Shown: positions 12,212-19,587 of the stretch, piece after piece
Layout of the letters: every line of letters begins with the position of its first letter
How positions within the stretch are numbered: the stretch's first letter is position 1
Source of the DNA: a bacterium
GTDB lineage: Bacteria > Planctomycetota > UBA1135 > GCA-002686595
DNA: 64,000 bases
Assembly (NCBI GenBank): GCA_024226735.1
Contig: JAAELL010000602.1
Span: 1-64,000, forward strand
Reading direction: 5' to 3'
The notes under the pieces: model-generated
Told to the model about the DNA's origin: nothing
Databases searched by the model: none
Seen by the model: the letters and a program-made list of their open reading frames with translations, nothing else
Translations under genes and position numbers: made by a program

Positions 12212-13453
12212 ATGAGCGAGTCAGCCGAGACATTCCGAGCCAAGGTCTGGAACGAGGACGAGCAGACGTACCGCTTCGCCGAAGTGGACTCGAACGTGCG
12301 GCGGCTTGTGTCGTTCCATGAGGAGCTGCGCGACGATCTGGTGGGGACGGGCTACATTGTGCAGACCGGGGAGTCTGAGGCCCGACTACTGTTCGCACCG
12401 TTCGGAGAGCTCGCGCAAATCGCCGAGTCCAGAGTCGTGCTCGTCTGCGCCGTGCACCTCAGCGGCGTCACGTACATGCTCCGGCACGCCATCGAGGCGC
12501 GCACGACGCGGACGGGAAAATGGGGGCGCTGCTGGGTCACGGACCCTGAAACGGAGCACGATACGCCTGAGCGGTGGTTGAGGTTCCTGGGGCAAGAGCT
12601 GAAGCAGGCCCGTCAGGGGGCGGTCTTCCGGAATCTCGTGTGTGCGATCATGAGCTTGCCGCTGATGCCGGAACCGGTCGTCTGGGTCCTAGCGGAGAGG
12701 GGGGCTCGACGTGCGCCTCCTGAGCCGGCCTTGGGCCAGCGTGTGCCATTCGACCAGCTGCTCCGGGAGCCCGAGGCGCCCGCGGAAGAGGCAGTCGTGC
12801 TCGATGTGGGGGACGGCGGCGCGGCGCCCACACGAGTCCCTGAGCCGACCTGGGTTGAGCCGCTCCCGGGTCACAACCACGCACTTTCTTGGGACGCGGA
12901 GCAACGGGTCGCTGGTGTGCGGGTTGGGCCGACGGTGTACGAGCTGCGAACCCCCGTCGAGCTCACGCGCAGCGAGGTCGCCGGGCATGTGTGCATCGGC
13001 TGCGCGGCGCTGCCGGTGCTCGAGGTGGCGGGCGAGGATTGGCCCCACGCGCTGCACGCCTGGGCGGGCGCGTTCCACGCAGCGTTCCAGGTGGCGCGCC
13101 GCAAGCACTTCGCGGGCGTGGGGGGAAGCTGGGAGCACTTCGCAGCAGCAGTCGACTTGGAAGCGTACGACGCGCAGCGTACTCAGGTGGAGCGCGAGGT
13201 CGGTGTGGTGGTCGACAGTGGGGCCTCGCACCGCGTGATCGAGTGGCTCGGTCAGAGCGAGCCGGAGCGCGTCGAATTCGGCGATGCGGATCCGGCTTTC
13301 AGCGGGCTCAACGTGGGCGAGTGGTTCGAGGCGAGCGTCGAAAGGCTCGTTGCGAGCTGGGCCCTTATCGGACTGTATTCGCCCCGACTACTGCCCGCCG
13401 AAGACGCCGAAGACGACGAGGCGTTCGAGGAATTCCTCGCGGGAGGGACCTGA
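12212..13453 (+). CDS. unknown 413-residue protein paired with an MBL-fold enzyme
   Basis: No family is recognised. The N-terminal half (~1-170) is mixed alpha/beta, followed by an acidic/proline linker (~180-220) and a C-terminal half rich in Trp and acidic residues, ending AEDAEDDEAFEEFL. No signal peptide or transmembrane helix, so cytoplasmic. ATG 12212 (MSESAETF) is preferred; TTG at 12167 would add 15 residues. Neither has a clear ribosome site. The TGA is one base before the TTG of the MBL gene, so the two are co-translated. Function cannot be named. Confidence 0.6.
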   Translation: MSESAETFRAKVWNEDEQTYRFAEVDSNVRRLVSFHEELRDDLVGTGYIVQTGESEARLLFAPFGELAQIAESRVVLVCAVHLSGVTYMLRHAIEARTTRTGKWGRCWVTDPETEHDTPERWLRFLGQELKQARQGAVFRNLVCAIMSLPLMPEPVVWVLAERGARRAPPEPALGQRVPFDQLLREPEAPAEEAVVLDVGDGGAAPTRVPEPTWVEPLPGHNHALSWDAEQRVAGVRVGPTVYELRTPVELTRSEVAGHVCIGCAALPVLEVAGEDWPHALHAWAGAFHAAFQVARRKHFAGVGGSWEHFAAAVDLEAYDAQRTQVEREVGVVVDSGASHRVIEWLGQSEPERVEFGDADPAFSGLNVGEWFEASVERLVASWALIGLYSPRLLPAEDAEDDEAFEEFLAGGT

Positions 13454-13454
13454 G

Positions 13455-14561
13455 TTGGACGCCGACCCGTCCCTCTTCGTTCTCGACATCGGTCAAGGCG
13501 CCTGCAGCGTCATCCGGGTCGACGACCATCACGCGATCGTGATCGACTGCGGGAGCTCGGCCCAGGAGGCGCGAGACTTGCTCCGTGACCTCGGGGTGGG
13601 GAAGATCGCACTCCTCGTCGTGTCGCACAACGACCGGGACCACGCGGACGGGGCGCCGGGGATCCTGGGCGCGTTCGCCGGCCAGGTGGAAGCGCTGGCC
13701 TTCCTGCAAGACCGGCCGATAGAGGATATCCGGTGGTTGAACAAGGCGAAGCAGGCGTTCCGCGGGCACCCGTGGCCGCGGCGCGTGCGACTCGAGGTCG
13801 ACGAGCAGGCGAACGCCCCGAAGGTGCTCTGGCCCCAGCCGGTCAAGGGCGAGCCCCCGCCCGAGCGCCCGCCCGATCCACGTCTCGAGCTCCTCTATCC
13901 CGAGCTCGGTGACAACATGGATGAACAGAGAGTCGGCGACACGAACGGAACCTCCGCCATCGTTGCGTTCGTCCACGGCAACCGGCGCGTCGTGTTCGGC
14001 GCCGACGCGCCGGTTCGGGCTTGGGACGCCGTCCATGCGCGCTTCGGCCAACAACCCTGCGACGTCCTCGTCACGCCGCACCACGGCGGCCTCTTGCTCG
14101 ACACCGACGACGTGGTGCACGAGCGCTCCGAGCTGGAGCGGGTCTTCCGTGACATCGTGCCCCACGAGCACGCCGTGATCTCGGTAGGCTCGAACAACAC
14201 CTACAGCCATCCGCGCGCGTCCTACGTCGCCGCGCTCAAGGCCTCCGGCTGCCGTGTCTTCTGCACGCAGATCACGCGAACCAAGAACAAGGTTGGGAAC
14301 GTTGACGAGCCCGCGTGCGCCGATCTCGGCTCGTTGACGGCTCCCGGCATCCTGCCGCGCGCCGACTACGGGATCTACCCGGGCAAGGCGGTGCGCCGCG
14401 CCCGCTGGATGTCGCCGGGCTTGGCGTGCATGGGAACGGTTGTCGTCCGGCTGCGCGCCACCGGGGCGAAGGTCGAGCGCGAACACATTCACGCGGCGGC
14501 GGTCGCGGCGCTCGCACCGAACCCGAACGGGTTGCTCCCTTTGTGCCGGCGTGAAGTGTGA
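13455..14561 (+). CDS. metallo-beta-lactamase-fold hydrolase (ComEC-like catalytic domain)
   Basis: The 368-residue product begins LFVLDIGQGACSVIRVDDH, the standard opening of the ComEC/Rec2-type MBL domain, and has the metal motif VVSHNDRDHADG (HxxxDH, ~54-65), later RRVVFGADAP and VTPHHGG (~215), then ISVGSNNTYSHPR, all typical of this subgroup. No membrane segments, so it is a free-standing soluble enzyme, not competence channel ComEC. TTG 13455 is chosen because GGGAGGGA lies 8 bases upstream and the preceding gene ends one base earlier. Stand-alone ComEC-like MBLs often sit in conflict or defence cassettes, which is inference here. Confidence 0.82.
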   Translation: MDADPSLFVLDIGQGACSVIRVDDHHAIVIDCGSSAQEARDLLRDLGVGKIALLVVSHNDRDHADGAPGILGAFAGQVEALAFLQDRPIEDIRWLNKAKQAFRGHPWPRRVRLEVDEQANAPKVLWPQPVKGEPPPERPPDPRLELLYPELGDNMDEQRVGDTNGTSAIVAFVHGNRRVVFGADAPVRAWDAVHARFGQQPCDVLVTPHHGGLLLDTDDVVHERSELERVFRDIVPHEHAVISVGSNNTYSHPRASYVAALKASGCRVFCTQITRTKNKVGNVDEPACADLGSLTAPGILPRADYGIYPGKAVRRARWMSPGLACMGTVVVRLRATGAKVEREHIHAAAVAALAPNPNGLLPLCRREV

Positions 14562-14676: not shown

Positions 14677-15657
14677 TCAGTTGCACCCGAGAGGCTGACG
14701 AGGTTGGGATCGGGTTTCGCGACGTAGCACCGTTCCCTTGCCGCCGACGCAGAGTCCTATCTCCGGCACGATTCCCACGAGCTCCGTTCCGCCTGTTTCG
14801 TGCACGACACGCCAGGTGAGGCCTCCGTTGGTCGTGTGGTGCAGATTGCCTTGCATCGTTGTTGCCCAGCCTTCGTTCTCGTTTGCGAACGCGACGTCGT
14901 TGAACTTGCCGCCGCTCGGTCCTGGCAGCGTCGACCATGTTCGGCCTCCGTCGCGGGTGACGAGTAGCGCGCCGCGCGCTGCCAGGACGAAGCCCGTGCG
15001 CGGAGTTGGGAAATGCACGGCGCGCAGCCAGTCGCTCGTGTCGGTCGCGACGCGCGTCCAGGTTGCGCCGGCGTCGAAGGTCGTCAGGAGGGTACCGCTC
15101 GTGCCGACGACGAAGCCGGTGTGCTCGTCGGTGAAGCAGACGTCGCGGTAGGACGCCGCGCGACCGGCCTTGGGCACGTTCGGCGTCAGTGACTCGAAGC
15201 TCCTTCCTCCGTCGCGCGTGCGCAAGAGGACTCCGTCGAGCGCGCTTCCACCCACGACGTAGCCGACGGTCCGGTTCGTGAACCAGGTGCCGGCGAGCCA
15301 GGTCTCGGTCCCCGACTCGCGGCGCTGCCAGCTCGCTCCGCCGTCGTCGGTCGCCAGGAACGTGCCCGCGAACCCGACGGCGTACCCGGTCCGTCGCGTC
15401 GGAAAGTGCACCGCATAGAGGCGTGCGTCGGTTTCGGTCGCGACCGGGCGCCACGTCGCGCCGCCGTCGGTGGTGCGCGCGAGAACATGCGGGTTCGAGT
15501 GCTCGCGGTCGCCGCCGACCGCGACACCATCGCGGGCGTCGGTGAACTCCGCGTCGAGCAGCAGGAACTCGAGCCCGGACGCGGTCGCTGACCAGCTCTG
15601 GGCGGGGGCGGTACAGGCTTGAACGGCGACGATGGCGAGAAGAGCGATGCAGCGCAT
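14677..15657 (-). CDS. secreted Ycf48-like Asp-box beta-propeller
   Basis: The 326-residue protein starts with a signal peptide or lipoprotein signal (IVAVQAC, Cys15). At least six Asp-box motifs follow: TTDGGATWR, TDDGGASWQ, TRDGGRSFE, TFDAGATWT, TRDGGRTWS and TTNGGLTWR, spaced about 45 residues with intervening VHFPT..TGY/F segments. This is a complete propeller of the Ycf48/BNR type. Function outside cells is unknown; in photosynthetic organisms Ycf48 is an assembly factor, which need not apply here. Divergent from the selenoprotein candidate with 57 bases between. Confidence 0.85.
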   Translation of the reverse strand: MRCIALLAIVAVQACTAPAQSWSATASGLEFLLLDAEFTDARDGVAVGGDREHSNPHVLARTTDGGATWRPVATETDARLYAVHFPTRRTGYAVGFAGTFLATDDGGASWQRRESGTETWLAGTWFTNRTVGYVVGGSALDGVLLRTRDGGRSFESLTPNVPKAGRAASYRDVCFTDEHTGFVVGTSGTLLTTFDAGATWTRVATDTSDWLRAVHFPTPRTGFVLAARGALLVTRDGGRTWSTLPGPSGGKFNDVAFANENEGWATTMQGNLHHTTNGGLTWRVVHETGGTELVGIVPEIGLCVGGKGTVLRRETRSQPRQPLGCN

Positions 15658-15714: not shown

Positions 15715-16779
15715 ATGATCGCACACGCCCTTCCAGCCCTCGCTCTCGCTACGTGCACCGCCACGAGCGCGGTCGACGATACGCCAGCCGACAAAACGCC
15801 CGTCGAGCTGGGGCGTGTCGGATGGACGCGCAACCTCGATGAGGCCGCGCAGGCGAGCGCCAAGGACGGCCGGCCCGTGCTGCTCCTCTTCCAGGAGATC
15901 CCTGGCTGAAGCACGTGCAAGGCCTTCGGGGAAGGCCCACTCAGCTTCCCGCCCCTGGTCGAAGCCGCGGAGACGCTCTTCGTCCCGGTCGTGATCCGCA
16001 ACAACGTCGAAGGCTACGAGCGCGAGGTGCTCGAACGCTTCGAGGAGCCGACCTGGAACAACCCGGTCGTGCGCTTCGTCGACGCGAAGCAGAAGGACCT
16101 GATCCCGCGCAAGGACCGCGTGTGGAAGACCGGGCCGCTGCTCGCGCGCATGGAGGCGGCGCTCGAGGCCGCCGAGCGCCCAGTGCCCGACTGGTTCCGC
16201 GCAGTCGCGCTGGAAGTCGGCACGGGCGACGTCGACGTCGCCGCCTTCGCGATGACGTGATTCTGGGAAGGCGAGGCTCACCTGGGTTCGATCCCGGGCG
16301 TGGTCTCCACGCGGGCAGCGTGGCACGAAGGCAAGGAAGTCGTCGAGGTTCGCTACGACGCCGAGCGACTGGCGTTCGAGGACCTGCTCGATCATGCCGT
16401 GCGCGGCGGCGCGGCGGCGCACGTCTACACGACGACGGACCGGCAGCTCCTCGCGGCGACGACCAAGCTCGGAGCGCGGGCTTCGAAGCTGAAGGGCGAC
16501 CCGCGGCCGTCGAAGGATTCCGACCAGCTCTACTACCTGCGTCGCTCGGCGCTGAACTACGTCCCGCTGACCCCCGTGCAGGCGCGGCGCGTCAACGCGG
16601 CGTTCGGCACGCAGGGTGACGCAGGTCGCTGGCTGTCGCCGCGCCAGCGCGCCTGGCGCGAACGCATCCAGAGCGCACTGGCAAACGATCCGAAGAAGCT
16701 CGCGGGGCTACGGCGGCCCGCGCGCGTCCAAGAGCTCGGCGGCTACGAGCTCGAGCTGGCGAAGAGGCTCGCGCGGTGA
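15715..16779 (+). CDS. candidate double-selenocysteine thioredoxin-like/MsrA fusion
   Basis: Reading through in-frame TGA at 15907-15909 and 16258-16260 gives 354 residues. Residues 1-~19 look like an export signal. Residues ~35-165 are thioredoxin-like: RPVLLLFQEIPG-U65-STC68-KAFG, then FVPVVIRNN and WNNPVVRFVD. Residues ~178-260 are MsrA-like: T-U182-FWEGEAHLG, then GVVSTRAAW and KEVVEVRYD, matching the GCFWxxE active site with U at the catalytic Cys and Glu at +5. The rest (YVPLTPVQARRVNAAFG) is a C-terminal extension. The only Cys residues are C14 (signal) and C68. Both TGAs fall exactly at redox positions and each has a SECIS-like hairpin. Likely role: repair of oxidised methionine with a built-in reductant. 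Neighbouring genes use TGA as a normal stop, so this is not global recoding. Confidence 0.85.
15907..15940 (+). promoter_or_regulatory. bacterial SECIS-like element for Sec65
   Basis: TGA 15907-15909 is followed by a 7-bp stem, GGCCTTC (15921-15927) with GAAGGCC (15931-15937), closed by a GGG apical loop. An outer GTG/CAC pairing (15915-15917 with 15938-15940) is separated by a CAA bulge. The apical loop lies about 18-21 bases after the TGA, within the range for bacterial SECIS, which usually carry a conserved G in the loop. Confidence 0.7.
16258..16300 (+). promoter_or_regulatory. bacterial SECIS-like element for Sec182
   Basis: TGA 16258-16260 is followed by CCTGGG (16281-16286) pairing with CCCGGG (16293-16298; one G-U pair) around a six-base loop TTCGAT containing G. 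The loop begins 26 bases after the TGA. The stem happens to resemble a tRNA T-arm, but no other tRNA arms are present. Confidence 0.6.
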
Positions 16780-16796: not shown

Positions 16797-18881
16797 TCAG
16801 GCTACACGCCGAAGCGGTTGCTGCTCGTCGCCTGTCCCGCTCAATCGCGCCTGGCGCGCGCTCGTGTGGATCCCGGTCCACATCACCGCCGCCGTGCCTC
16901 CGAGCAGCAGTCCGACCAGTAGCGCCAGGAGCACCGACGGGCTCGCCGGCGTCCGCGGCGCGCGAGCGGGATCGATCAGGCGCGCGTTCGGGAGCGCACC
17001 TGCGCGCGCGATCGCGGCGTCCTCGCGCTTCGTGCGCAGCTTCGCGACGACGGTGTCGAGCGCTTCGCGTCGGCCGAGCGGATCCTTGAGCAAGCGCTCC
17101 ACCCCCGGCAGCTGGCCGATGCGGGAGCGCAGGGTGTCGAGCTCGCGCAGCAGAGCGTTCTCCTGGTCGCGCACACCATCGACGCGCTTCGCGATCGCTC
17201 GCTCGACGAGCGCCCAGTGGCTCTCGATCGCGGCATCGATGCGCGCCAACTCGTCCTCGGGGTGCGACTCGCGCAGGCTCCGCCAGTCATTGACGATCGC
17301 TTCTTGAGCGGCCAGCTCGGCCTCGAGGCCGAGCTGGCGCGCTCCGAGGTGGGCGACGACGCGCTCGAGGATCGCGGCCATCTCGCGCCGAGCGGCGCGG
17401 ACAGCGTAGTACTCGGACGTGAACGTCGCCTCGAACTCGAGCGCGCGCCGCTCCGTCTTGGCGTAGTCGCCGATGTGGTGCAGCGTGAGCGCGTCGACCG
17501 TGACCGCGCCCTCCTTGGCGTTCTCTTCCCCCAGTCGGCCGAGCACCGAGCGATCGCCCGCCGCGAGTCCGGCGAGGATCAGGTCGAGCCCGATCAGCTT
17601 CGACTCGAGCTGCGCGCGTAGCCGCTCATCATCGGCGAGCTTGATCTGGAGCGTGCTCGTCAACATGCCCGGCCCTTCGCGGGCGACGCGCGTGCGCTCG
17701 TCCTCCAGGACGCCGATGAACTCGAGGTAGCGCCGCGCCACGGGGTCATCGAGGTCGGAACCCAAGCGCGAGACGGAGGCGCGATCGCCCGCGCGCACCA
17801 GCTCGTCGACGTCCTGCAGCGAGCGGCGCAAGCGACTGACCCGCGCCAGATCGGTGCTCGTGGCCGTCTGGCGCTGGTTGAGCTGCGTGAATGCCTTGTC
17901 GATCTCGATCGCGTCGGGGAAGAGCTCCAGGATGCGCGCGATCTCACGATCGATCACCGCGAGCTCGCCTTCGCGGCTGACGAGCTCGCGCTCGACGTAC
18001 TCGATCGCGCGATCGGCGCGTTCGAGCGTCGCTGCGACGTCGAGCTCCATGTACGTGTCGATCACTGAGCGCGCGATCTCGGCCGCCCGAACGGGGTGCG
18101 TGTCCTCGACGCGGACCCGCACGAGCCCCTCGAACCCCGTGCGCGCCGAGGCTTGCACGCGCTGCTGCACACGGACGGCGGCGTCCTCGGTCGTCAAGCG
18201 CTCGACGCTGAAGCTGCGGTCGTCGCGAACGCCGCGTGTCTCGACCCGTACGCGCAGTCCGGCGAAATGCATCGCCCGGCCAGGCTCGTAGGCAAAGATC
18301 TCCGGCTCGTTCTCGGGCCATTCGATGCCCGGCGCGCCCGAGGCGTGCGAGAGGACGCAGCGATCTCCGTCGACGAAGCGCACGCGGATCTGGCGTGCGG
18401 CGTCGGGGCTCATCGGCTCGAGCGCCGCGAAGAGGCGGAAGTCGGCGGACGTGTCGCCGGTGAGACCGCGGAAGAACGTCTTGAGCGGCGCGCGCCCCTC
18501 GTCCTCGACCCACGTCGTCAGTCCCATGCGACGCGCGTACTCGGGGTGGTCCGGGGTCGCGAGCTCGCCGTCTGTCGGCGCTTCGACCAGGCTCGCCGCC
18601 AAGTCGTAGGATGCGAGCACGGTCAGGGCCTCACCGACGTCGGTCGTCCCCGTCGGAATGTCGAGCTCTTCCAGAACCGGGCTCTTCGACAGCTCGTCTC
18701 CGACACGGAGACTCGCGGTCGCGACAAAGGTAGGCGTCTTGGAGAGCGTCAGCGCGACGACGATGCACGTGATCGAGAGCGTGATGACGATCGCGGTGAG
18801 CGGACGGCGAAACATGGAACCGGACGCGCGGCGCAGGCGCTTCCAGTCCTCGGTCAAGTCGTACTCGCGCGGGGCGTGCAT
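16797..18881 (-). CDS. Wzz/GumC-like polysaccharide co-polymerase
   Basis: The 694-residue inner-membrane protein has a transmembrane helix near ~26-46 (LTAIVITLSITCIVVALTL), a Wzz-type periplasmic domain, long coiled-coil helices (~290-610, rich in Glu/Arg/Leu/Ala) and a second transmembrane helix near the C-terminus (PSVLLALLVGLLLGGTAA). This is the PCP-2/GumC layout without the cytoplasmic tyrosine-kinase domain. It should set chain length and bridge to the export channel. Start ATG 18881 (MHAPREYDL) follows five bases after the Wza-like gene's stop. Confidence 0.85.
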   Translation of the reverse strand: MHAPREYDLTEDWKRLRRASGSMFRRPLTAIVITLSITCIVVALTLSKTPTFVATASLRVGDELSKSPVLEELDIPTGTTDVGEALTVLASYDLAASLVEAPTDGELATPDHPEYARRMGLTTWVEDEGRAPLKTFFRGLTGDTSADFRLFAALEPMSPDAARQIRVRFVDGDRCVLSHASGAPGIEWPENEPEIFAYEPGRAMHFAGLRVRVETRGVRDDRSFSVERLTTEDAAVRVQQRVQASARTGFEGLVRVRVEDTHPVRAAEIARSVIDTYMELDVAATLERADRAIEYVERELVSREGELAVIDREIARILELFPDAIEIDKAFTQLNQRQTATSTDLARVSRLRRSLQDVDELVRAGDRASVSRLGSDLDDPVARRYLEFIGVLEDERTRVAREGPGMLTSTLQIKLADDERLRAQLESKLIGLDLILAGLAAGDRSVLGRLGEENAKEGAVTVDALTLHHIGDYAKTERRALEFEATFTSEYYAVRAARREMAAILERVVAHLGARQLGLEAELAAQEAIVNDWRSLRESHPEDELARIDAAIESHWALVERAIAKRVDGVRDQENALLRELDTLRSRIGQLPGVERLLKDPLGRREALDTVVAKLRTKREDAAIARAGALPNARLIDPARAPRTPASPSVLLALLVGLLLGGTAAVMWTGIHTSARQARLSGTGDEQQPLRRVA

Positions 18882-18885
18882 GCTA

Positions 18886-19587
18886 TCAGCGAATGAGCGG
18901 TGTCTCGACGACGTTGCGCGTCGTGAACCCGAGGCCCGAGAGGATCGGCAAGATGTCTTCCTGGAAGTCGTCGACGCCCGTTTGGCGCACGAACACGATG
19001 TCGCCGGGGAGCAGCTGCACCAGTCCGCCCGCATCGGGCGTGCGTGCGTTGAAGAGGTGCACCTCGATGCGGTCGCCGTGGGGTCGGATCAAGAAGACGT
19101 TCTTGCGGTCGGCGCCGCGCACGTAGTGGCCACCGGTCGACAGCGCCTCGAGGGCATTGATCTGACGGTCCATCCGTTTGCGCCCAGGCTCCGAGATGTG
19201 CCCGAGGACGTAGTAGTCGCGCGAGTCGTAGGACACGACGCTCGTCGACACGTGCGGCTCGAGGACGAACTCGCCGTACGCGGCTTCGACCTCCTCGTTG
19301 ATCCGCGAGAGCGACTTGCCGGCTGCGTCGTACTTACCGATCAGCGGCAAGTACAAGAAGCCCTGTGGGTCGACGCGGATGCCGTCCTGCGGCGACGACA
19401 GCTCGGGATGCCCGATGAAGTGGACACGCAGGACGTCATTCGGGCCGATGCCGAGCCAGCTCCAGTCGCGTTCGGTCGTCACGGTCGTCACGTCCGCGTC
19501 CGAAGACGGAGCGGCCGCCGTCATGCAGGACGGCGTACAGGCGCAGAGACAAAGCGCTAGCCAGAGCGCGAGCTTCGGGCGGAACAC
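18886..19587 (-). CDS. Wza-like polysaccharide export lipoprotein
   Basis: The 233-residue lipoprotein (signal with CLCAC and PSC candidates near residues 16-21) carries the polysaccharide biosynthesis/export domain: WLGIGPNDVLRVHFIGHPEL ... IRVDPQGFLYLPLIGKYDAAGKSL ... INEEVEAAYGEFVLEPHVS, followed by an SLBB-like part (YYVLGHISEPG ... ALEALSTGGHY ... LLPGDIVFVRQ). It is shorter than E. coli Wza and lacks an obvious C-terminal amphipathic outer-membrane helix. It forms the export unit with the Wzz-like gene directly downstream. Confidence 0.9.
   Translation of the reverse strand: MFRPKLALWLALCLCACTPSCMTAAAPSSDADVTTVTTERDWSWLGIGPNDVLRVHFIGHPELSSPQDGIRVDPQGFLYLPLIGKYDAAGKSLSRINEEVEAAYGEFVLEPHVSTSVVSYDSRDYYVLGHISEPGRKRMDRQINALEALSTGGHYVRGADRKNVFLIRPHGDRIEVHLFNARTPDAGGLVQLLPGDIVFVRQTGVDDFQEDILPILSGLGFTTRNVVETPLIR

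What the first reader, a model, noticed from the sequence alone, without database searches (positions are those of the whole stretch)
15907..16300. Two different SECIS-like hairpins in one gene
Each TGA is followed at about 20 and 26 bases by a 6-7-bp stem with a G-containing small loop. The first adds an outer GTG/CAC pair across a bulge. Having two independent elements in one message is rare and tests how one mRNA loads SelB twice.
Basis: partly seen in the sequence, partly recalled or inferred. Interest (0 to 1): 0.7.

Follow-up and report, generated by a model that had tools for sequence, protein, structure and literature searches.

The report
Double-selenocysteine protein, two different SECIS hairpins
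A planctomycete gene for a two-domain redox protein (thioredoxin-like plus methionine-sulfoxide-reductase-like) very probably reads two internal stop codons as selenocysteine; the first has a textbook RNA signal, while the second has an unusual, rebuilt hairpin in place of the signal its relatives carry.

Summary
The gene (15715-16779, +) has in-frame TGAs at 15907 and 16258 and belongs to NCBIfam NF041383, 'VPGUxxT family thioredoxin-like (seleno)protein, type 2' (390 bits, cut-off 275). Both TGAs sit at Sec/Cys positions of the family: 28 genes are Sec/Sec, 11 Sec/Cys, 14 Cys/Cys, none Cys/Sec. The genome has SelA, SelB, SelD and tRNA-Sec.

In 26 of 29 genes with Sec at site 2 (0 of 28 with Cys), SECIS2 is a covarying 7-bp hairpin with an NGUU loop at +19.

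On this sequence alone neither hairpin beats codon-shuffled controls; the relatives carry the case. Double-Sec bacterial proteins are already known. The less expected part is that SECIS2 was remodelled while its UGA was kept.

The parts
15715..16779 (+). Gene for a two-domain double-Sec protein of family NF041383, 354 aa plus TGA stop
15826..16087 (+). Thioredoxin-like domain (Thioredoxin_7, residues 37-124), with UxxC motif U65-S-T-C68
15907..15909 (+). TGA for Sec65; Sec or Cys in all relatives but one (Gly in L057)
15921..15937 (+). SECIS1 hairpin, 7 bp, loop GGG
   Evidence: meets the bSECIS rules quoted
15915..15940 (+). SECIS1 with the outer GTG/CAC pair across a CAA bulge; outer pair not conserved
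16228..16776 (+). MsrA-like domain and C-terminus (residues 172-354); structural match to Sec-MsrA covers residues about 172-320
16258..16260 (+). TGA for Sec182 at the MsrA catalytic position; Sec or Cys in all relatives
16281..16298 (+).
16273..16307 (+). Extended, lineage-specific candidate SECIS2, shared in outline with sister L056
   Evidence: p 0.11 here and 0.05 in L056 against codon shuffles
16273..16290 (+). Place of the family's ancestral SECIS2 (+12 to +29, NGUU loop); here GAGGCUC-ACCU-GGGUUCG, loop lost
16777..16779 (+). Terminal TGA, read as stop; no SECIS-like hairpin downstream

Best explanation
The gene encodes a two-domain thiol/selenol oxidoreductase: a thioredoxin-like domain (DsbD-C/DsbH type) whose attacking residue is Sec65 (UxxC with Cys68), fused to a shortened MsrA-like domain whose catalytic residue is Sec182. 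Both UGAs are decoded by the genome's SelB with tRNA-Sec. UGA65 is read through SECIS1, a standard bacterial SECIS. UGA182 is read through a lineage-specific SECIS2 that replaced the family's NGUU-loop hairpin: the same 5' strand GAGGC now pairs further downstream, which moves the apical loop from +19 to +26. Likely chemistry: Sec182 reduces an oxidised substrate (methionine sulfoxide or similar) and is regenerated by Sec65/Cys68, since this protein lacks the Cys that most relatives keep in the MsrA-like domain. Shown by comparison: family, Sec/Cys pairing, SECIS1, the ancestral SECIS2 and its loss here. Inferred: that the divergent hairpin works, export (hydrophobic N-terminus), substrate and chemistry.
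For: NF041383 at 390 bits; Sec/Cys pairing at both columns, 28 UU, 11 UC, 14 CC; SelA, SelB, SelD, tRNA-Sec in the genome, SelB over cut-off in 52 of 54 genomes with the gene. SECIS1: 7 of 7 pairs held in 7 sequences, one compensatory pair; rule-abiding hairpin with G[G/U] loop in 32 of 40 TGA genes against 1 of 14 Cys genes. Family SECIS2: 26 of 29 TGA genes against 0 of 28 Cys genes, covariation score 0.322 against 0.179 shuffled, 0 of 500, none in Cys homologues. Window and L056 share the replacement hairpin and are sisters at 99/93. MsrA and thioredoxin folds. Invariant Sec/Cys, Trp, Glu. Missing Cys.
Against: SECIS2 of the window has no G in the first two loop positions unless the closing G-C opens, fails the published G rule in its minimum-energy form, is not significant against codon shuffles, and its codons are not unusually conserved between the two sister genes (6 of 14 against 72 of 149 elsewhere). 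No expression or protein data.
Confidence: 0.7

Rival explanations
1. Sec65 is inserted normally, but SECIS2 has decayed in this lineage: UGA182 is read poorly, so the main product is the thioredoxin-like domain alone, with little full-length enzyme.
For: Loss of the NGUU loop in the window and L056; weak single-sequence support for the replacement hairpin; little synonymous conservation there.
Against: The UGA, the frame and the MsrA-like domain are kept in both sister genes at 57% protein identity, with no drift to Cys or another codon; both genes independently allow an extended fold of about -18 kcal/mol with one double-sided change.
Confidence: 0.22
2. Sec at UGA182 does not need its own element here: the hairpin is a by-product of coding sequence, and SelB delivered by SECIS1, or another downstream element not recognised, serves the second UGA.
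For: Hairpin 2 falls outside the usual loop rule and is expected often by chance.
Against: Relatives keep a dedicated, covarying SECIS2; UGA182 lies about 350 nt after SECIS1, far beyond the 16-37 nt spacing of bacterial elements; a UGA stop in the same message must stay a stop.
Confidence: 0.06
3. Pseudogene or assembly error: the TGAs are ordinary stops and the hairpins chance.
For: Each hairpin alone is not significant against codon shuffles.
Against: 27 other genes from other genomes have TGA at the same two columns, aligned with Cys elsewhere, in genomes with the Sec machinery.
Confidence: 0.02

Closest known systems
NCBIfam NF041383, VPGUxxT family thioredoxin-like (seleno)protein, type 2 (hypothetical protein OS_HP5)
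   Same: Full-length match over the curated cut-off; same VPGU/IPGU motif and UxxC
   Different: Listed with one Sec in the 2026 review (PMC13188914, Table 1); this member has two, as do 28 of 58 relatives read here
Sec-containing MsrA (Clostridium oremlandii, PDB 4lwj-4lwm, 4u66; Sec16)
   Same: Same fold for residues about 172-320 (Z 16.6), Sec at the same catalytic position followed by FW
   Different: Motif MTUFWEG not GUFWG; shortened domain without the standard resolving Cys; fused behind a Sec-thioredoxin-like domain
Bacterial SECIS (consensus bSECIS model; E. coli fdhF type)
   Same: SECIS1 meets all published rules; the family SECIS2 has the G-U loop at +19
PilB-type Trx-MsrA-MsrB fusions of Neisseria
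   Same: MsrA-type domain in a fusion (PilB MsrA matched at Z about 12); thioredoxin-like partner domain by general knowledge
   Different: No MsrB here, Sec at both active sites, different thioredoxin subfamily; resemblance in arrangement only
Other bacterial double-Sec families (e.g. NF041115 UxxU, NF045648 MbdU, NF041536)
   Same: Two Sec in one protein
   Different: Unrelated domains; listed in PMC13188914

Membership tests
NF041383 (VPGUxxT thioredoxin-like selenoprotein, type 2) | Full-length profile match over the curated cut-off | tested here: met
   390.6 bits against 275, profile 1-286 of 287
NF041383 (VPGUxxT thioredoxin-like selenoprotein, type 2) | Sec or Cys in the (V/I)PG(U/C) motif | tested here: met
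   IPGUSTC, aligned with VPGC/VPGU
MsrA (PF01625) | MsrA fold | tested here: met
   Z 16.6 to C. oremlandii MsrA, 146 residues aligned at 3.0 A; profile hit to MsrA chains E 2.9e-11
MsrA (PF01625) | Catalytic Cys/Sec, Trp and Glu | tested here: met
   Invariant Sec/Cys182, Trp184, Glu208; equivalence to the MsrA residues is from general knowledge
MsrA (PF01625) | Full-length MsrA domain match | tested here: not met
   Only profile positions 2-33 of 153 matched, 23.8 bits against 23.7; 17.6 bits against 108 for TIGR00401. So MsrA-like, not filed as MsrA
MsrA (PF01625) | Methionine sulfoxide reductase activity | not testable with these tools
   Needs purified protein
Bacterial SECIS (SECIS1) | Loop 3-9 nt, stem 4-16 bp, G in first two loop positions, 16-37 nt from UGA, at most -7.5 kcal/mol | tested here: met
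   GGG loop, 7 bp, 18 nt, -10.0 kcal/mol
Bacterial SECIS (SECIS1) | Conserved or covarying stem in relatives | tested here: met
   All 7 pairs in 7 sequences, one compensatory pair
Bacterial SECIS (SECIS2) | Stem, spacing and energy rules | tested here: met
   6-bp stem, 26 nt, -9.6 kcal/mol; -18.3 extended
Bacterial SECIS (SECIS2) | G in the first two loop positions | tested here: inconclusive
   UUCGAU fails; opening the closing G-C gives GUUCGAUC, which passes but then the energy is -6.1, above -7.5
Bacterial SECIS (SECIS2) | Covariation in relatives | tested here: inconclusive
   Only L056 shares it; one double-sided change, register shift
Bacterial SECIS (either) | SelB binding and readthrough | not testable with these tools
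   Needs binding or reporter assay
Sec-decoding organism | SelA, SelB, SelD and tRNA-Sec in the genome | tested here: met

The most novel reading that the evidence does not exclude
In the lineage of this genome and its sister, the second SECIS was rebuilt with the UGA kept: the ancestral NGUU-loop hairpin at +19 was replaced by a longer hairpin whose loop at +26 lacks the G(G/U) top seen in SECIS1, SelD and the Sec-MsrA of the same genome, so one SelB reads two structurally different elements in one message.
Probability: 0.4. Interest if true: 0.6.

Novelty: new variant of a known kind. Interest (0 to 1): 0.42.

Why it matters
A catalogued selenoprotein family listed with one Sec turns out to be commonly double-Sec in this phylum, with Sec at the active-site positions of two fused domains. 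The Sec/Sec, Sec/Cys and Cys/Cys states, together with a covarying ancestral SECIS2, give a natural series for how a second Sec and its RNA element are gained, lost or rebuilt. The window's gene tests what SelB needs in the apical loop, with SECIS1, the genome's own Sec-MsrA (GGUU loop at +19) and the terminal UGA stop as built-in controls.

Tried and rejected
Single-sequence significance of the hairpins: not reached. Rfam at a relaxed threshold: no SECIS match, two poor hits on the other strand. The outer GTG/CAC pair of SECIS1 as a conserved element: rejected. A +19 NGUU hairpin in the window's SECIS2: rejected, the loop is ACCU. More members of the window/L056 lineage: none found among the 81 genomes of the family or the 154 of the order and class; the genome-contig scan gave two partial planctomycete relatives. 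Literature on a double-Sec VPGUxxT protein: only the 2026 review names the family. A second SelB in the own genome: only one hit over the cut-off; weaker hits were not examined further.

Full report
WHAT IS THERE. The finding lies in a 354-codon plus-strand gene, 15715-16779, that is open if TGA is read as selenocysteine: TGA at 15907-15909 (residue 65) and 16258-16260 (residue 182); the gene ends in a third TGA, 16777-16779.

FAMILY. The protein matches NCBIfam NF041383, 'VPGUxxT family thioredoxin-like (seleno)protein, type 2', over the whole profile (390.6 bits, cut-off 275), with Pfam Thioredoxin_7 and the first part of PMSR/MsrA. An AlphaFold model from 53 family members has mean pLDDT 96.6 (model residue = protein residue minus 23). 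Model residues 149-297 match the natural Sec-MsrA of Clostridium oremlandii (Z 16.6, 3.0 A over 146 residues) and residues 11-132 match thioredoxin-like domains such as 3f9u, DsbH and DsbD-C (Z 12-15). A profile search of solved structures also finds MsrA (best E 2.9e-11). The Sec182/Cys position, Trp184 and Glu208 are invariant; by general knowledge of MsrA these correspond to its catalytic Cys, Trp and Glu. The window protein lacks a Cys in the MsrA-like domain that 48 of 57 relatives keep, which is why I propose that the UxxC of the thioredoxin-like domain resolves Sec182; that step is inference.

BOTH TGAs ARE SEC. Among 53 genes with Sec or Cys readable at both sites, 28 have TGA at both, 11 at the first only, 14 at neither and none at the second only (one further gene has Gly at site 1, four are partial). 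The genome has SelA, SelB, SelD (with its own TGA) and tRNA-Sec; SelB passes its cut-off in 52 of 54 genomes with the gene. The phylum, Planctomycetota, is inferred from L050, a titled contig that shares its sequence with L063, from a genome of the window's family.

SECIS1. It satisfies the rules of the published bSECIS model (PMC13188914). In the window and six close relatives all seven stem pairs hold in every sequence, with one compensatory pair (G-C to A-U in three); the outer GTG/CAC pair fails in five of seven at two of its three positions. More distant double-Sec relatives use a hairpin further downstream (loop GUN at about +27), itself covarying. At site 1, 32 of 40 TGA genes but 1 of 14 Cys genes have a rule-abiding hairpin with a G[G/U] loop.

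SECIS2 IN THE FAMILY. It is a 7-bp hairpin at +12 to +29 with an NGUU loop at +19. At least 5 of 7 pairs plus the NGU loop are found in 26 of 29 TGA genes and 0 of 28 Cys genes (Fisher p 3e-13, which ignores relatedness). Covariation: 95.7% of cells paired, 4 pairs with double changes, score 0.322 against a shuffled mean of 0.179, reached in 0 of 500 shuffles; in Cys homologues 39.3% paired and no signal (A1 left out the window, L056 and a few relatives with a bulged stem, and A4 four gap-prone Cys rows). The same 12-nt spacer, stem and GGUU loop stand in the genome's own separate Sec-MsrA (L010/L091), and its SelD has a GUU loop.

THE WINDOW'S SECIS2 IS DIVERGENT. Here the +19 site reads GAGGCUC-ACCU-GGGUUCG, without GUU. 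L056, the sister gene (99/93 support; 57% protein identity), shows the same loss. Both can instead form an extended hairpin that uses the same 5' strand GAGGC and a 3' strand GUCUC further on, with the loop at +26: UUCGAU here, AUCUGUA in L056; -18.3 and -18.4 kcal/mol, with a U-G to G-C double change in the lower stem and a register shift in the 3' arm. The four nearest relatives outside this pair (L054, L055, L058, L075) keep the NGUU loop, so the simplest history is replacement in the common ancestor of the two. Against codon shuffles the extended fold has p 0.11 (window) and 0.05 (L056), and codon identity between the two genes is not raised there (6 of 14, against 72 of 149 elsewhere and 11 of 14 after Sec65). 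Its function is therefore plausible, not established; decay of SECIS2 is the main rival.

CONTROLS. Codon-shuffle tests on the window alone are not significant: GC-rich sequence makes such stems easily. Over the family, mean z is lower for TGA than for Cys genes at both sites (p 0.002 and 0.006). The terminal TGA has no rule-abiding hairpin. Rfam finds no SECIS here.

KNOWN OR NEW. Bacterial proteins with two or three Sec are known: the 2026 review counts 119 families or subfamilies, most with one Sec and a small subset with 2-3, and lists NF041383 with one. The double-Sec state of this family was not found described in the papers searched; NCBI's own annotation of individual members was not checked. 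I rate it a new variant of a known kind.

Noticed in passing
L010/L091 (G000:C435:5606-6019): The same genome encodes a separate Sec-MsrA (ALGUFWG) with hairpin GACUCCC-GGUU-CGGGAGUC at +19, the layout the window's gene has lost.
   Followed up: partly
G000:C32:2183-7610 (L013, L069, L068): tRNA-Sec, SelD (itself with a TGA, GUU-loop hairpin) and SelA lie within about 5.5 kb on one contig; SelB is on another.
   Followed up: partly
Family alignment: Sec at site 2 is never seen without Sec at site 1 (28 Sec/Sec, 11 Sec/Cys, 14 Cys/Cys, 0 Cys/Sec), suggesting an order of gain or loss.
   Followed up: no
Family alignment, site 1: SECIS1 sits at three different spacings (loop at about +18, +22 and +27) in different relatives: SECIS position turns over within one family.
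   Followed up: partly
L057, site 1: One family member has GGC (Gly) at the Sec65 position with Cys68 kept (IHGGAVC), in a genome that has SelB.
   Followed up: no
14677-15657 (-); 16797-19587 (-): Neighbours: a YCF48/BNR-repeat protein upstream; downstream a protein with a sub-threshold GNVR match and a polysaccharide export (Poly_export/SLBB) gene. The selenoprotein gene stands alone on its strand between them.
   Followed up: no
13284-14561 (+): Metallo-beta-lactamase superfamily protein.
   Followed up: no
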